Shown piece by piece: positions 47,843 through 51,270 of a stretch of DNA of 64,000 nucleotides. The position numbers and the translations under genes were made by a program. The notes beneath the pieces are model-generated. The model was not told the origin of the DNA and ran no database searches. It saw nothing but the letters and a program-made list of their open reading frames with translations. Where the stretch lies: NCBI RefSeq assembly GCF_023517775.1, contig NZ_CP082904.1:2170001-2234000 (forward strand), written 5' to 3'. Source of the stretch: Mixta hanseatica. GTDB lineage: Bacteria; Pseudomonadota; Gammaproteobacteria; Enterobacterales; Enterobacteriaceae. The first letter of the stretch is position 1; each line of letters starts with the position of its first letter.

Positions 47843-47879
47843 CCTTGCTGCCAGTGCCAACGTTTTTACCCGGCTGGCA
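47843..47879 (-). promoter_or_regulatory. RhaS activator site of the rhaBADM promoter
   Basis: On the minus strand the bases read TGCCA, 16 bases, GGCA, 8 bases, AAGG. The pattern fits remembered features of the E. coli rhaBAD RhaS site (TGCCA in one half, AAGG at the end). A -10-like TACACT follows 19 bases downstream (47823-47818). Confidence 0.75.
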
Positions 47880-47895
47880 GGGGCGTAAAGAAGGA

Positions 47896-47911
47896 CGTGA
47901 AGCAGCTCACA
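47896..47911. promoter_or_regulatory. CRP site of the rhaBADM promoter
   Basis: CGTGA-AGCAGC-TCACA matches 9 of 10 CRP consensus positions. Its centre is 26.5 bases upstream of the middle of the TGCCA element, and about 92.5 from the deduced start of transcription, as in E. coli. Confidence 0.75.
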
Positions 47912-48084
47912 AAACTGTTTTTCCCCGCCGTGGCGATAGGGTGTGACCCTTGCCGCAATTTTGAAGATTTCCAGCTATTTCTGGAAAAATTAACCGCTTA
48001 ACCCTGTTTTGCGGTGCAAAATTCAAGGTAAGTTAAGCGCGCGCTGGCTAGTATCGGTCGCACAGAGGTAAACGAGGACGCATC

Positions 48085-48909
48085 ATGACCGTATTACATA
48101 GCGACGATTTTTTTCCGCAGGGCGATCTACCGGTAGCTATTGAACCCCGGGCGCCGCAGGGCGTTTTTCCTGAACATCATCATGACTTTCATGAAATCGT
48201 GCTGGTGGAACAGGGTGCGGGCATTCATATATTTAACGGCCAGCCCCAGTCGCTGTGCGGCGGCTGCGTCTGCTTTGTGCGCGATCACGATCGTCATCTC
48301 TATGAACAGACGGAGAACTTATTCCTGACCAATGTGCTGTGGCGTGGTCCTCAGGCGTTTCGCTTTCTTACCGGGCTACAGGATTTACTGCCGCAGGAGC
48401 ACGATGGCCGTTACCCTTCCCACTGGCGCATCAGCAATCGGGTTATGACGCAGGCGAAAACGTTGGTGGCGCAGCTGCAGGAGCCTGACGGCAGCGATGC
48501 CATGGGGCAACGCGTACACCAGGAGCTGACTTTTATGCAACTGCTGGTTCTGCTACGTCAGGGCTGCCGCGAGCAGGAGAGCGATGCGCAAGAGGCCCGC
48601 CTGCTGCGCCTGCTTGACTGGCTTAACGAACACTACAGCGAAGATATCGACTGGGAGGCGCTGGCGGATCGCTTTTCGCTGTCGCTGCGAACCCTGCACC
48701 GTCAGCTTAAACAGCAAACCGGTAGTACGCCGCAGCGCTATCTTAATCGGCTGCGTCTTTTGCAGGCGCGCCACCTACTACGCCATAGCGAAATGCGGAT
48801 TACGGATATTGCGTTTCAGTGCGGCTTTGGCGACAGCAATCACTTTTCAACGCTGTTTCGTCGTGAATTTGGCTGCGCGCCGCGCGCCGAGCGACAGCAG
48901 ATGTGGTAA
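48085..48909 (+). CDS. rhaS: L-rhamnose-responsive activator RhaS
   Basis: RhaS binds L-rhamnose and activates rhaBADM, rhaT and here probably aldA. The 274-residue AraC family protein matches E. coli RhaS: MTVLHSDDFFPQGDLPVAIEPR, the cupin sensor FPEHHHDFHEIVLVEQGAGIHIFNGQP and CFVRDHDRHLYE, and the helix-turn-helix FSLSLRTLHRQLKQQTG and DIAFQCGFGDSNHFSTLFRREF. GAGG precedes the start. Upstream, a GCAA-N2-TT-N1-AAG motif occurs twice (47954 and 48016), perhaps RhaR half-sites. rhaR follows after 14 bases. Confidence 0.93.
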   Translation: MTVLHSDDFFPQGDLPVAIEPRAPQGVFPEHHHDFHEIVLVEQGAGIHIFNGQPQSLCGGCVCFVRDHDRHLYEQTENLFLTNVLWRGPQAFRFLTGLQDLLPQEHDGRYPSHWRISNRVMTQAKTLVAQLQEPDGSDAMGQRVHQELTFMQLLVLLRQGCREQESDAQEARLLRLLDWLNEHYSEDIDWEALADRFSLSLRTLHRQLKQQTGSTPQRYLNRLRLLQARHLLRHSEMRITDIAFQCGFGDSNHFSTLFRREFGCAPRAERQQMW

Positions 48910-48923
48910 CACAGGAGAACACC

Positions 48924-49793
48924 ATGGGGTTAACCCTGGCGAAGGCGGACTATTTTCCCTCTGAAGCGATGCCGGTGTCGGTCGCCGACCGTGCGCCGCA
49001 GCCCTCTTTCCCGCCCCATCAACATGAATTCAGTGAAATTGTTATCGTCTGGCGCGGCAACGGCCTGCACGTGCTGAACGATCGCCCATGGCTGGTCACC
49101 TGCGGCGATCTGTTTTATATCCAGCACAGCGACTGCCACAGCTATGAATCGGTCAACGATCTGGTGCTGGATAATATCCTTTATTGTCAGGAGCGTTTTC
49201 GGCTGGGGCTGGACTGGAGCCAGCTGCTGCCGCTGGATGATGCTGACTATCGTGTCCACTGGCGCTTAACCACGCGCGGCATGGCGCTGGCGCGCGGCGT
49301 GATTTTGCAACTGGAGCAGGAGAGCCGTAAAACCGATATGCTTTCTATGCAGTTGGCGGAGGCGCTGTTTCTACAGCTGGCGCTTATCCTGCGGCGGCAT
49401 CGCTACGTGGCCGAGCGTGCCGGCGAACTGCCGGAAGGCGAGCAGCTCGATTTGCTGATGTCCGCTATCCAGGCCAGCACCGCCCGTCCCTTCGATCTGG
49501 CCGCCTTCTGCCAGCATAACCGGCTCAGCGAACGCGCCCTGAAACAGCTGTTTCGTCAGCAAACCGGAATGACCATTGGCCATTATCTGCGTCAGCTGCA
49601 GCTGTGCCAGGCTAAATATCTGCTGCGCAGTACGGCGTTACTGATTGGCGAAGTGGCCTCCCGCTGCGGCTTTGATGACAGCAACTACTTTTCCGCCGTC
49701 TTTACGCGCGAAACCGGCTTTACCCCCAGCGCCTGGCGGCAACGCTTTGAGCGTCCCGGCAAATTTCAGCTACAGCCGGAACAGCAAAAATAA
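48924..49793 (+). CDS. rhaR: L-rhamnose-responsive activator RhaR
   Basis: RhaR binds rhamnose and activates rhaSR. The 289-residue AraC family protein shares with E. coli RhaR the sensor stretch FSEIVIVWRGNGLHVLNDRPW, GDLFYIQHSDCHSYESVNDLVL, and the DNA-binding part SERALKQLFRQQTGMTIGHYLRQLQL and VASRCGFDDSNYFSAVFTRETGFTPSAWR. The ATG at 48924 follows AGGAG; it lies 14 bases after rhaS. Confidence 0.93.
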   Translation: MGLTLAKADYFPSEAMPVSVADRAPQPSFPPHQHEFSEIVIVWRGNGLHVLNDRPWLVTCGDLFYIQHSDCHSYESVNDLVLDNILYCQERFRLGLDWSQLLPLDDADYRVHWRLTTRGMALARGVILQLEQESRKTDMLSMQLAEALFLQLALILRRHRYVAERAGELPEGEQLDLLMSAIQASTARPFDLAAFCQHNRLSERALKQLFRQQTGMTIGHYLRQLQLCQAKYLLRSTALLIGEVASRCGFDDSNYFSAVFTRETGFTPSAWRQRFERPGKFQLQPEQQK

Positions 49794-49934
49794 CCCCCGC
49801 CTGGTCCTGCGTTGTCGGTAGGAACGGGGCGCTTTTCCCTCTGGCGCCCGCCCCAAAGCGGCGGCTGTGGCAAAATCGCCAGGGGCTGCAAACAGGCCGC
49901 GGCCTGGCTCTGTTGCCGCCAGGCCGCCCGCCCG

Positions 49935-50969
49935 TTAACCGGCCATGCCCATGCCAACTACGTTCGCCGCCAGAATAATGACCAGACACCCCACCGAAAG
50001 CACCCTGACCGGACGACGCCCTACCGCGTGCCACTCTTTCATCAGCAATCCGACGATGCCGCCGCACAGTACATACAGGCTCATATGCAGCATCCAGCTG
50101 ACAAAGTCATACTGCGCCGGAATATTGGCGTGGCCCCAGGCATAGAAAAAGAATTGTAGATACCACATCAGGCCGCCAAGCATGGCAAAGGCGATATTCG
50201 CTCCCAGCAGGGGTTTCGCCAGAGAGAAATCCGCTTTTACCGACAGCGTTGGTTTTACCGCCAGACGCACAAAGCAGTAAGCCAGGTTTACCAACGCCCC
50301 ACCCCCCATGATGACTACATAGCTCGGCAGCGCAACGTATAGCGGGTTGATACCGGCAGCGGCGGCAGCTTCGTGCATCGGTTTTGCCGCATCCATTGCA
50401 AATGACATGCCGGCGGAAAAAATGCCGCACAGCACCGCCAGTACTAACCCCTTTTTCAGGTTGAACTCTTCCGCGCTGATGCCCAGCGCACGCTCTTTCA
50501 GGAAACCCGCGCGGGAAACAATGATCACCCCGACCAGCGCAATCAGTACGCCCAGCAGCGTCATTCGCCCGCCGGCAGAGCTGAACAGTACCATAAAGCG
50601 CCCCTGCAGCAGCGGCGTCATCAGCGTACCGACCACCAGCGTAATGCCAATAGCGATGCCAATGCCCATCGACATGCCGAGATAGCGCATCGTTAGTCCA
50701 TAGTTAACATTACCGATTCCCCACATGGCGCCGAACAAAAACACCGGCAGCAGCTGCGACAAACTGAATTGCTGGAAATATCCCCAGAAATCGGGCAGCA
50801 GCACCGCGCTGACCGACCAGGGCAGAATTAACCAGGACATAACGCCGCCCACTGACCACATCGTTTCCCATGACCAGTTTCTGACGCGTTTCAACGGGGC
50901 ATAAAAACAGGCGGCGCTGGCGGCACCGACCAGATGCCAGAGAATGCCGGCAAGGATTGCGTTGTTCAT
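49935..50969 (-). CDS. rhaT: L-rhamnose/proton symporter
   Basis: RhaT imports L-rhamnose with a proton. The 344-residue protein with about ten membrane segments matches E. coli RhaT: ILAGILWHLVGAASAACFYAPLKRVRNWSWETMWSVGG, MWGIGNVNYGLTMRYLGMSMGIGIAIGI, and QFFFYAWGHANIPAQYDFVSWMLHMSLYVLCGGIVGLLMKEW. It is convergent with rhaR and divergent from aldA. Its promoter region carries the same RhaS/CRP layout as rhaB. Confidence 0.95.
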   Translation of the reverse strand: MNNAILAGILWHLVGAASAACFYAPLKRVRNWSWETMWSVGGVMSWLILPWSVSAVLLPDFWGYFQQFSLSQLLPVFLFGAMWGIGNVNYGLTMRYLGMSMGIGIAIGITLVVGTLMTPLLQGRFMVLFSSAGGRMTLLGVLIALVGVIIVSRAGFLKERALGISAEEFNLKKGLVLAVLCGIFSAGMSFAMDAAKPMHEAAAAAGINPLYVALPSYVVIMGGGALVNLAYCFVRLAVKPTLSVKADFSLAKPLLGANIAFAMLGGLMWYLQFFFYAWGHANIPAQYDFVSWMLHMSLYVLCGGIVGLLMKEWHAVGRRPVRVLSVGCLVIILAANVVGMGMAG

Positions 50970-51051
50970 CGTTATTCCTTAGTAAGGTTGAGGCCAGCAG
51001 GAGAAGAGACTCCCGATTACTGCGAGTCTAAAGAGTTCATTTCCTCGCCAG

Positions 51052-51088
51052 CCTTTCGCTGGCTGCCCGCCTGCGGATTGTGATGGCA
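51052..51088 (-). promoter_or_regulatory. RhaS activator site of the rhaT promoter
   Basis: On the minus strand: TGCCA, 16 bases, GGCA, 8 bases, AAGG, the same spacing as at rhaB. A -10-like TAGACT follows (51030-51025). Confidence 0.75.
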
Positions 51089-51104
51089 AAAATCAGCAGG
51101 TCCC

Positions 51105-51120
51105 GGCGATAACGATCACA
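51105..51120. promoter_or_regulatory. CRP-like site of the rhaT promoter
   Basis: On the minus strand TGTGA-TCGTTA-TCGCC matches 8 of 10 CRP positions. Its centre is 26.5 bases from the TGCCA element, exactly as at rhaB. Confidence 0.65.
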
Positions 51121-51201
51121 AATTAATCACAGCGTCCCTTCTGCGCATTGTCCGGCGCCTTTGGCGTTAAATTATTGCTGTAAAAGCGTAATTTCAGGTT
51201 A

Positions 51202-51217
51202 TGTAATCCAGGTCAGG
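51202..51217. promoter_or_regulatory. Weak CRP-like site of the aldA promoter
   Basis: TGTAA-TCCAGG-TCAGG matches 7 of 10 CRP positions. On its own it would be ignored, but its centre lies 26.5 bases upstream of the TGCCA element, the same distance as at rhaB and rhaT. Confidence 0.5.
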
Positions 51218-51233
51218 TCAATTTCTGTATTTT

Positions 51234-51270
51234 TGCCAGTGAACCGGAATAAATGGCATTCAACGGAAGG
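51234..51270 (+). promoter_or_regulatory. RhaS activator site of the aldA promoter
   Basis: On the plus strand: TGCCA (51234-51238), 16 bases, GGCA (51255-51258), 8 bases, AAGG (51267-51270). All elements and spacings equal those at rhaB and rhaT. Confidence 0.72.

What the first reader, a model, noticed from the sequence alone, without database searches (positions are those of the whole stretch)
47843..51270. Same RhaS/CRP promoter architecture at rhaB, rhaT and aldA: aldA joins the rhamnose regulon
Three promoters carry TGCCA-N16-GGCA-N8-AAGG with identical spacings: rhaB (47879-47843, minus), rhaT (51088-51052, minus) and aldA (51234-51270, plus). In each, a CRP-like site is centred 26.5 bases from the middle of the TGCCA element (47903.5, 51112.5 and 51209.5). 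The CRP match falls from 9/10 to 8/10 to 7/10. E. coli rhaBAD is known to use RhaS and CRP; the exact repeat at aldA implies direct RhaS control of lactaldehyde oxidation beside its pathway.
Basis: partly seen in the sequence, partly recalled or inferred. Interest (0 to 1): 0.75.

Follow-up and report, generated by a model that had tools for sequence, protein, structure and literature searches.

The report
Rhamnose activator also controls lactaldehyde dehydrogenase
In Mixta and its relatives the rhamnose-sensing activator RhaS very probably also switches on aldA, the enzyme that burns the lactaldehyde left over from rhamnose; the link was already predicted for one related plant bacterium, so this is a solid extension of a known regulon rather than a new kind of control.

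Summary
The motif is real: TGCCA-N16-GGCA-N8-AAGG occurs exactly three times in the 4.44 Mb genome, at rhaB, rhaT and aldA. It is the inner part of a RhaS operator, two inverted half-sites (GGCA-N8-AAGG) 17 bp apart. A profile trained on rhaB and rhaT sites of other genera ranks aldA second in the genome (capped list). The site precedes aldA in 41 of 41 loci that hold aldA near rhaS and 8 of 8 Mixta genomes, but is absent at 18 Enterobacteriaceae aldA loci (one truncated) and one E. coli. It needs one change on an AldA tree. Half-sites are RhaS-type, not RhaR-type (41 of 41).

The CRP half of the claim fails: CRP matches at aldA are 2-7 of 10 and not conserved within Mixta.

Further probable targets in Mixta are a rhiTN-like operon (8 of 8) and a distant lactaldehyde reductase (7 of 8, imperfect half-site), so both fates of lactaldehyde may answer to RhaS. 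RhaS control of aldA was already predicted for Erwinia carotovora (PMC3870299): new member of a known kind.

The parts
51222..51237 (+). aldA promoter, RhaS half-site 1 (TTTCTGTATTTTTGCC; GGCA-N8-GAAA on the other strand)
   Evidence: outer contact weak, inner TGCC intact
51255..51271 (+). aldA promoter, RhaS half-site 2 (GGCATTCAACGGAAGGT), 17 bp from half-site 1; it begins 112 bp before the aldA start
   Evidence: RhaS PWM 17.3 versus RhaR PWM -2.0
51202..51217 (+). CRP-like window of aldA (TGTAATCCAGGTCAGG, 7/10); not conserved, probably not a functional CRP site
51291..51296 (+). weak -10-like hexamer of aldA (AAAGGT), in the register of the CAC.CT box of Pantoea aldA promoters (inferred)
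51367..52803 (+). aldA, lactaldehyde/aldehyde dehydrogenase
   Evidence: NCBIfam NF007497 875.5 bits against cut-off 500; best PDB matches 2opx and 2hg2 are named aldehyde dehydrogenase A / lactaldehyde dehydrogenase
51052..51100 (-). rhaT promoter RhaS operator (half-site 2 51052-51067, spacer 17, half-site 1 51085-51100)
   Evidence: (best listed hit of the genome, E 5.4e-5)
51105..51120 (-). CRP site of rhaT (8/10)
51025..51030 (-). -10 box of rhaT, TAGACT (inferred)
49935..50969 (-). rhaT, L-rhamnose/proton symporter
   Evidence: NF010021 650.1 bits against cut-off 509
47843..47891 (-). rhaBAD promoter RhaS operator (half-site 2 47843-47858, spacer 17, half-site 1 47876-47891)
47896..47911 (-). 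CRP site of rhaBAD (9/10)
47818..47823 (-). -10 box of rhaBAD, TACACT (inferred)
46314..47783 (-). rhaB, rhamnulokinase (rhaA 45061-46323 and rhaD 44207-45058 follow)
48085..48909 (+). rhaS, AraC-family activator
   Evidence: NF010028 470.4 bits against cut-off 288
48924..49793 (+). rhaR, AraC-family activator
   Evidence: NF010026 505.5 bits against cut-off 363
47979..48029 (+). presumed RhaR operator of rhaSR (half-site 1 47979-47995, spacer 17, half-site 2 48013-48029), used as the contrast to the RhaS sites
   Evidence: assigned to RhaR by place and by the literature, not by a test here

Best explanation
aldA is a direct target of RhaS. With L-rhamnose present, a RhaS dimer binds two inverted half-sites (51222-51237 and 51255-51271) 17 bp apart. 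The downstream half-site overlaps a poor -35 element (AGGTGA), so RhaS recruits RNA polymerase to a weak promoter and aldA is made together with rhaBAD and rhaT. L-lactaldehyde from the RhaD aldolase is then oxidised by AldA. Unlike rhaBAD and rhaT, the aldA promoter has no conserved CRP site, so it most likely works by RhaS without CRP. Shown by sequence here: operator anatomy, specificity of the exact motif, conservation, RhaS type, one change on the tree. Inferred: binding, polymerase contact, rhamnose response, CRP independence.
For: Three exact genome hits, all at rha/aldA promoters. Profile R1, from 65 rhaB+rhaT sites with no aldA site and no Mixta locus, lists aldA second genome-wide (20.9 bits, E 0.0015). 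Site with spacer 17 in 41 of 41 loci that hold aldA within 10 kb of rhaS, window included, and in 8 of 8 Mixta genomes, p 0.002-0.017 each. It begins 78-144 bp before aldA also where other DNA parts aldA from rhaT (137-aa ORF in Pantoea L020; 5.6 kb in L051) or where aldA lies outside the rha locus (Erwinia oleae L133; G139). Of 18 Enterobacteriaceae aldA loci outside the rha locus (L134-L151; L151 truncated at its start) none has it, nor has E. coli L095. One change on the AldA tree; 500 label shuffles average 24.2, none as low. Both half-sites score RhaS over RhaR in 41 of 41. The half-site consensus equals the E. coli half-sites printed in PMC12858550 (passages).
Against: No expression or binding data. 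The window's outer half-site at aldA is weak: with the full operator pattern aldA has 2 mismatches, as have 12 other places of the genome. Its -10-like box is poor (AAAGGT). The clade split in the AldA tree has 81% SH-aLRT support by a quick search. The R1 search scored 150 of 3,330 first-look candidates, did not list the rhiT site and listed rhaB fifth, tied, with a partial match. Many loci are Pantoea and not independent. In one search the RhaR control sites were mostly in the training set.
Confidence: 0.88

Rival explanations
1. The operator near aldA serves rhaT as a remote upstream element, and aldA is only a neighbour.
For: In the window the two operators share one 397-bp divergent intergenic region.
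Against: rhaT has its own operator. The second site begins 78-144 bp before aldA in all 41 loci, including Pantoea L020 with a 137-aa ORF between the genes, and accompanies aldA where it lies elsewhere (L133, G139).
Confidence: 0.03
2. RhaR, not RhaS, binds at aldA, since the published RhaR operator has a 17-bp spacer.
For: PMC3870299 gives 17 bp for RhaR (passage); all 41 aldA sites have 17.
Against: rhaT sites also have spacer 17 (68 of 69 that score 10.5 or more, E. coli locus L089 included), as do 73 of 79 rhaB sites. The presumed RhaR half-sites carry AAAATT before CAAGG; the PWM contrast puts both aldA half-sites with RhaS in 41 of 41.
Confidence: 0.04
3. One reading: RhaS plus CRP act together at aldA as at rhaBAD.
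For: 7/10 match exactly 26.5 bp from TGCCA; about 0.35% by chance at one fixed place with equal base frequencies. TG and TC of the two arms are kept in 81-90% of 21 thinned aldA promoters. PMC11434101 says CRP sites lie in all E. coli rhamnose operons (passage).
Against: The TGTGA letters 3-5 are kept in only 14, 10 and 19% (rhaB 100%, rhaT 97%). In Mixta the scores are 7, 6, 6, 4, 5, 4, 5, 2. Of 41 loci none exceeds 7 and 33 have 5 or less.
Confidence: 0.12
4. Chance similarity or relic with no function.
For: Poor -10; weak outer half-site in the window.
Against: No site-less AldA falls inside the 45-row site-bearing side of the tree, although the spacer DNA has diverged.
Confidence: 0.03

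Closest known systems
E. coli rhaBAD and rhaT promoters activated by RhaS with CRP (PMC9429829 and PMC12858550, passages read)
   Same: Two inverted half-sites GNCA-N8-AAGG, downstream one at or beside -35; CRP site upstream of rhaBAD and rhaT at the same offset in E. coli locus L089
   Different: aldA lacks a conserved CRP site; E. coli L089 rhaB has spacer 16, 73 of 79 loci have 17; the one E. coli aldA examined (L095) has no RhaS site
RhaS regulon of Erwinia carotovora with aldA (PMC3870299, passage read)
   Same: aldA predicted as a RhaS-regulated gene
   Different: The passage names that one species for aldA; here the site is shown in loci named Mixta, Pantoea, Erwinia, Winslowiella, Izhakiella, Rouxiella and Serratia, with one change on the AldA tree. 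I could not inspect a Pectobacterium sequence by name, nor the paper's supplement
RhaS regulon of Erwinia chrysanthemi with rhiTN and rhaO (PMC3870299, passages read)
   Same: A rhiTN-like operon and a lactaldehyde reductase carry RhaS-type sites in Mixta
   Different: There rhaO is described with aldA absent from the genome; Mixta has both genes

Membership tests
RhaS-activated promoter | Two inverted half-sites with GNCA-N8-AAGG contacts | tested here: met
   half-site 2 exact, half-site 1 with intact TGCC but weak outer contact
RhaS-activated promoter | Half-sites 16 or 17 bp apart (range measured here at rhaB and rhaT) | tested here: met
   17 in 41 of 41 aldA loci
RhaS-activated promoter | Half-site type RhaS rather than RhaR | tested here: met
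   41 of 41 for both half-sites
RhaS-activated promoter | Downstream half-site overlaps or abuts -35, with a -10 about 17 bp on | tested here: inconclusive
   Register kept with relatives, but the -10 is AAAGGT
RhaS-activated promoter | Rhamnose- and RhaS-dependent transcription | not testable with these tools
   needs bench work
RhaS plus CRP co-activated promoter (rhaBAD type) | Conserved CRP site about 26.5 bp upstream of TGCCA | tested here: not met
E. coli-type AldA (lactaldehyde dehydrogenase) | Family model above curated cut-off | tested here: met
   NF007497 875.5 bits, cut-off 500; 2opx 771.8 bits
E. coli-type AldA (lactaldehyde dehydrogenase) | Lactaldehyde oxidation activity | not testable with these tools
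   enzyme assay needed

The most novel reading that the evidence does not exclude
In Mixta a single regulator, RhaS, controls both fates of L-lactaldehyde from separate promoters: oxidation by AldA (a RhaS promoter without CRP) and reduction by a RhaO/FucO-type reductase 572 kb from rhaS. AldA was recruited into the regulon once, so redox partitioning of rhamnose carbon is set downstream of one sensor rather than by choosing one enzyme per lineage.
Probability: 0.5. Interest if true: 0.55.

Novelty: new member of a known kind. Interest (0 to 1): 0.42.

Why it matters
It gives a clean example of a catabolic gene joining a sugar regulon: one inferred change of an operator on the AldA tree, with no site-less AldA seen inside the site-bearing clade, while the E. 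coli-type aldA loci examined lack it. If true, aldA induction by rhamnose is direct on the Erwinia-Pantoea-Mixta side, but would have to be indirect, or absent, in the E. coli-like species examined. It also suggests that CRP is dispensable in this architecture and that 17 bp, not the 16 bp of the E. coli rhaB examined, is the usual RhaS spacer. Two lactaldehyde branches under one regulator can be tested with simple reporters.

Tried and rejected
CRP co-control of aldA: tested by conservation and rejected as the leading reading. RhaR control: rejected by half-site profiles. Operator belonging to rhaT: rejected by loci where aldA is separated from rhaT. An association between the aldA site and absence of the reductase was looked at: reductase in 3 of 9 genera with the site against 14 of 19 without it, Fisher p 0.095; too weak to claim. 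The third listed R1 hit (G000:C1:2357091-2357130) lies inside a gene for an aldehyde-alcohol dehydrogenase-like protein (name recalled from its sequence) and is a partial match, taken as chance. The 12 other places with 2 mismatches to the full operator and the other R1 hits were not examined gene by gene, except the reductase and rhiT places. A third RhaS half-site at the CRP place of aldA was considered (TTTGCC 32 bp before the inner TGCC in many relatives); unresolved, and absent in the window itself.

Limits and mishaps. One search kept the best 80 of 202 relatives, so distant rha loci are missing. In one search the RhaB query was translated in the wrong frame; its RhaB rows are meaningless and were not used (rhaB promoters were taken from the rhaS side), corrected. 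In one search the unlinked-aldA part failed and was redone. Null scores come from 300-400 first-order resamplings per region, so 0.002-0.003 is their floor, and the regions are not independent. In one search, 20 of 29 genomes had an AldA (L077 was not held); the nine without one include five Erwiniaceae or Rouxiella genomes (those of L017, L025, L028, L036, L037), so the gene itself is sometimes lost. In one search, L132 is the already linked L050, L133 has the site, and L151 begins at residue 92, so 17 site-less loci have a full start. In one search, 27 other genera with AldA were examined: 8 have the site, 19 do not (G040 and G090 have weak matches of 10.5 that I counted as absent; G123, AldA 77% identical, lacks it). 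The Mixta set of 8 includes the window's own genome, and L153 is probably the species of L014. The coordinates behind the reductase-rhaS distances were copied by hand.
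Full report
Observation. The pattern TGCCA-N16-GGCA-N8-AAGG is present exactly where stated and nowhere else in the 4.44 Mb genome (3 exact hits; 13 hits at up to one mismatch against 3 for the reversed control). In the window at up to 3 mismatches, 38 hits against 27.6 expected (4 of 100 shuffles as many) show that the loose pattern is uninformative. The nearest named locus is Mixta theicola, RhaS 97%.

What the motif is. E. coli RhaS half-sites printed in PMC12858550 (passages) are GGCAACCAGGGAAAGAT (reverse strand) and GTCAGTAACGAGAAGG. 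In the best 80 of 202 rhaS loci from named genomes plus the window, a credible rhaB operator (score 10.5 or more) is found in 79 of 81, with spacer 17 in 73 and 16 in 6 (E. coli L089 and Mixta theicola L014 among the six). Of the 70 loci with rhaT, 69 reach that score, with spacer 17 in 68 and 16 in one. aldA has spacer 17 in 41 of 41. So 17 bp is the rule in this set, and the E. coli rhaB examined is an exception. With the full operator pattern, however, aldA has 2 mismatches and so have 12 other places of the own genome; the case for aldA rests on the exact inner motif and on conservation.

Independent test at aldA. A sequence-only profile (R1) was built from 65 thinned rhaB and rhaT sites, leaving out every aldA site and the Mixta loci L014, L015, L055 and the window. 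In the own genome its two best listed hits are rhaT (25.5 bits) and aldA (20.9 bits, E 0.0015). rhaB comes fifth, tied, with a partial match, and only 150 of 3,330 first-look candidates were scored, so the list is incomplete. With 200 bp upstream of each aldA, resampled sequence reaches the observed score with p 0.003-0.007 in each of 41 loci. Of 2,000 random 200-bp windows of the same loci, real sites included, 3.7% reach 10.8, the lowest aldA score.

Phylogeny. All 8 Mixta genomes searched have the site, beginning 111-112 bp before aldA. Of 119 genomes of the wider family, one per genus code, 28 have AldA; all 28 have RhaS, against 22 of the other 91 (Fisher p 6.6e-14, not corrected for phylogeny or reduced genomes). 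Of the 27 other genera with AldA, 8 have the operator and 19 do not. Of 20 aldA loci fetched through named loci, L132 (the linked L050 again) and L133 (Erwinia oleae, outside its rha locus) have it; the other 18, one of them truncated, and E. coli L095 do not. On an AldA tree of 76 rows (quick method) the site-bearing rows are one side of a single branch, support 81% SH-aLRT, one change against a shuffled mean of 24.2. No site-less AldA lies among those 45 rows. Some relatives have lost the gene itself: five of the Erwiniaceae or Rouxiella genomes searched have no AldA at 1e-150. Synteny varies (beside rhaT; beyond a 137-aa ORF; outside the rha locus; beside a rhaS paralogue in G071 and G060), but the operator goes with aldA.

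RhaS, not RhaR. The rhaS promoters carry a different conserved operator, half-site about GTC.AAAATTCAAGGT, recognised in 79 of 81 loci; I take it for the RhaR operator by its place. Position weight matrices from the two operator types, Mixta left out, assign both aldA half-sites to RhaS in 41 of 41. The rhaS-promoter sites, most of them training rows, are assigned to RhaS in 1 of 79 (half-site 1) and 0 of 79 (half-site 2).

CRP. At the canonical offset rhaB promoters score 8 or 9 of 10 in 79 of 79, and rhaT 6-9 in 65 of 69. aldA scores are 2 (1 locus), 3 (6), 4 (13), 5 (13), 6 (6) and 7 (2; the window and L033). In thinned sets the TGTGA arm is nearly invariant at rhaB and rhaT, but at aldA it reads mostly TGC(C/T)G. 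In Mixta the arm is TGTAA only in the window, TGCC(A/G/T) in six others and TACCG in one, so the window's 7/10 is partly a private change. The TTTGC.G...TC element itself is conserved and unexplained. I therefore read aldA as RhaS-driven without CRP, with modest confidence on the CRP part.

Regulon beyond the finding. The full operator pattern has three best places in the own genome, each with 1 mismatch in 15 fixed letters: rhaB, rhaT and G000:C1:1793721-1793769. The last precedes a GPH-type transporter (PF13347; GPH model TIGR00792 below its cut-off) and a hydrolase of PF07470 (GH88), whose best PDB match is 3qwt, a GH105 family protein. I call this rhiTN-like from gene order and family; against that, NCBIfam names the hydrolase beta-galactosidase BglB (NF051900, 507 bits, cut-off 420). 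PMC3870299 reports RhaS control of rhiTN in Erwinia chrysanthemi (passage). The site is kept in 8 of 8 Mixta. An iron-containing lactaldehyde reductase (TIGR02638, 531 bits, cut-off 523; under the cut-off of NF007911, also named lactaldehyde reductase) has a RhaS-type operator at G000:C1:2790103-2790151, found in 7 of 8 Mixta (p 0.003-0.017 each; G033 lacks it). Its downstream half-site reads GACC or GGCC instead of GGCA, as at rhaB of L028 (GACC), so it is imperfect; R1 lists it weakly (13.3 bits, E 0.42). In 31 of 32 genera with both genes this reductase lies within 11 kb of rhaS; in the own genome it is 572 kb away. PMC3870299 describes aldA and rhaO in different species' regulons (passage); here both appear in one.

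Known or new. RhaS control of aldA was predicted for E. carotovora in 2013 (PMC3870299; abstract, outline and passages seen; its supplement was not available). In the listings of my other searches (20 of 109 shown; 10 of 77; 2 of 2) I saw no other title or abstract start about aldA as a RhaS target or about both lactaldehyde branches under RhaS; of those papers I opened only PMC3870299 and PMC11434101, so this is not proof of absence. PMC11434101 (passages) states that no other RhaS or RhaR promoters are known in E. coli, which agrees with the lack of a site at the E. coli aldA examined. Verdict: new member of a known kind, with a useful evolutionary result and a testable two-branch regulon.

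Noticed in passing
G000:C1:1793721-1793769 (L112 7722-7770): Strong RhaS-type operator before a GPH-type transporter and a GH88/GH105-type hydrolase (rhiTN-like; NCBIfam names the hydrolase BglB); conserved in 8 of 8 Mixta.
   Followed up: yes
G000:C1:2790103-2790151 and 2790272-2791402 (L222): Lactaldehyde reductase far from rhaS with its own imperfect RhaS-type operator in 7 of 8 Mixta; a TGTGA or CGTGA arm sits at the CRP-left position in those seven, whole CRP match 4-7 of 10.
   Followed up: yes
window 51202-51217 and the same offset in relatives: At the CRP place of aldA most relatives carry a conserved TTTGC(C/T)G-N-TC element that is not a CRP core; nature unknown.
   Followed up: partly
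L188 (G071) 5074-7533; L191 (G060) 5476-8008: A rhaS paralogue lies directly upstream of aldA on the same strand in two genera; in G060 the genome search reports one in-frame stop in it.
   Followed up: partly
rhaB promoters of L014, L046, L076, L079, L080, L089: RhaS spacer is 16 bp at rhaB in these six and 17 in the other 73; rhaT of L084 also scores best with 16.
   Followed up: partly
L025 and L066: No credible RhaS operator on the rhaB side of rhaS (scores 9.1 and 9.5); in L025 rhaT lies directly behind rhaS and no separate rhaR match is seen.
   Followed up: no
L220 (G033) and L221 (G035): Genome search reports one TAA inside the RhiT-like match in these two Mixta genomes.
   Followed up: no
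L020 13061-13474: A 137-aa ORF of unknown function sits between rhaT and aldA in Pantoea rodasii.
   Followed up: no
genomes of L017, L025, L028, L036, L037: No AldA at E 1e-150 or better although rhaS is present: the aldA gene itself appears to be missing there.
   Followed up: no
L055: The record named Mixta mediterraneensis groups with Pantoea in the AldA tree, which suggests a naming or transfer issue.
   Followed up: no
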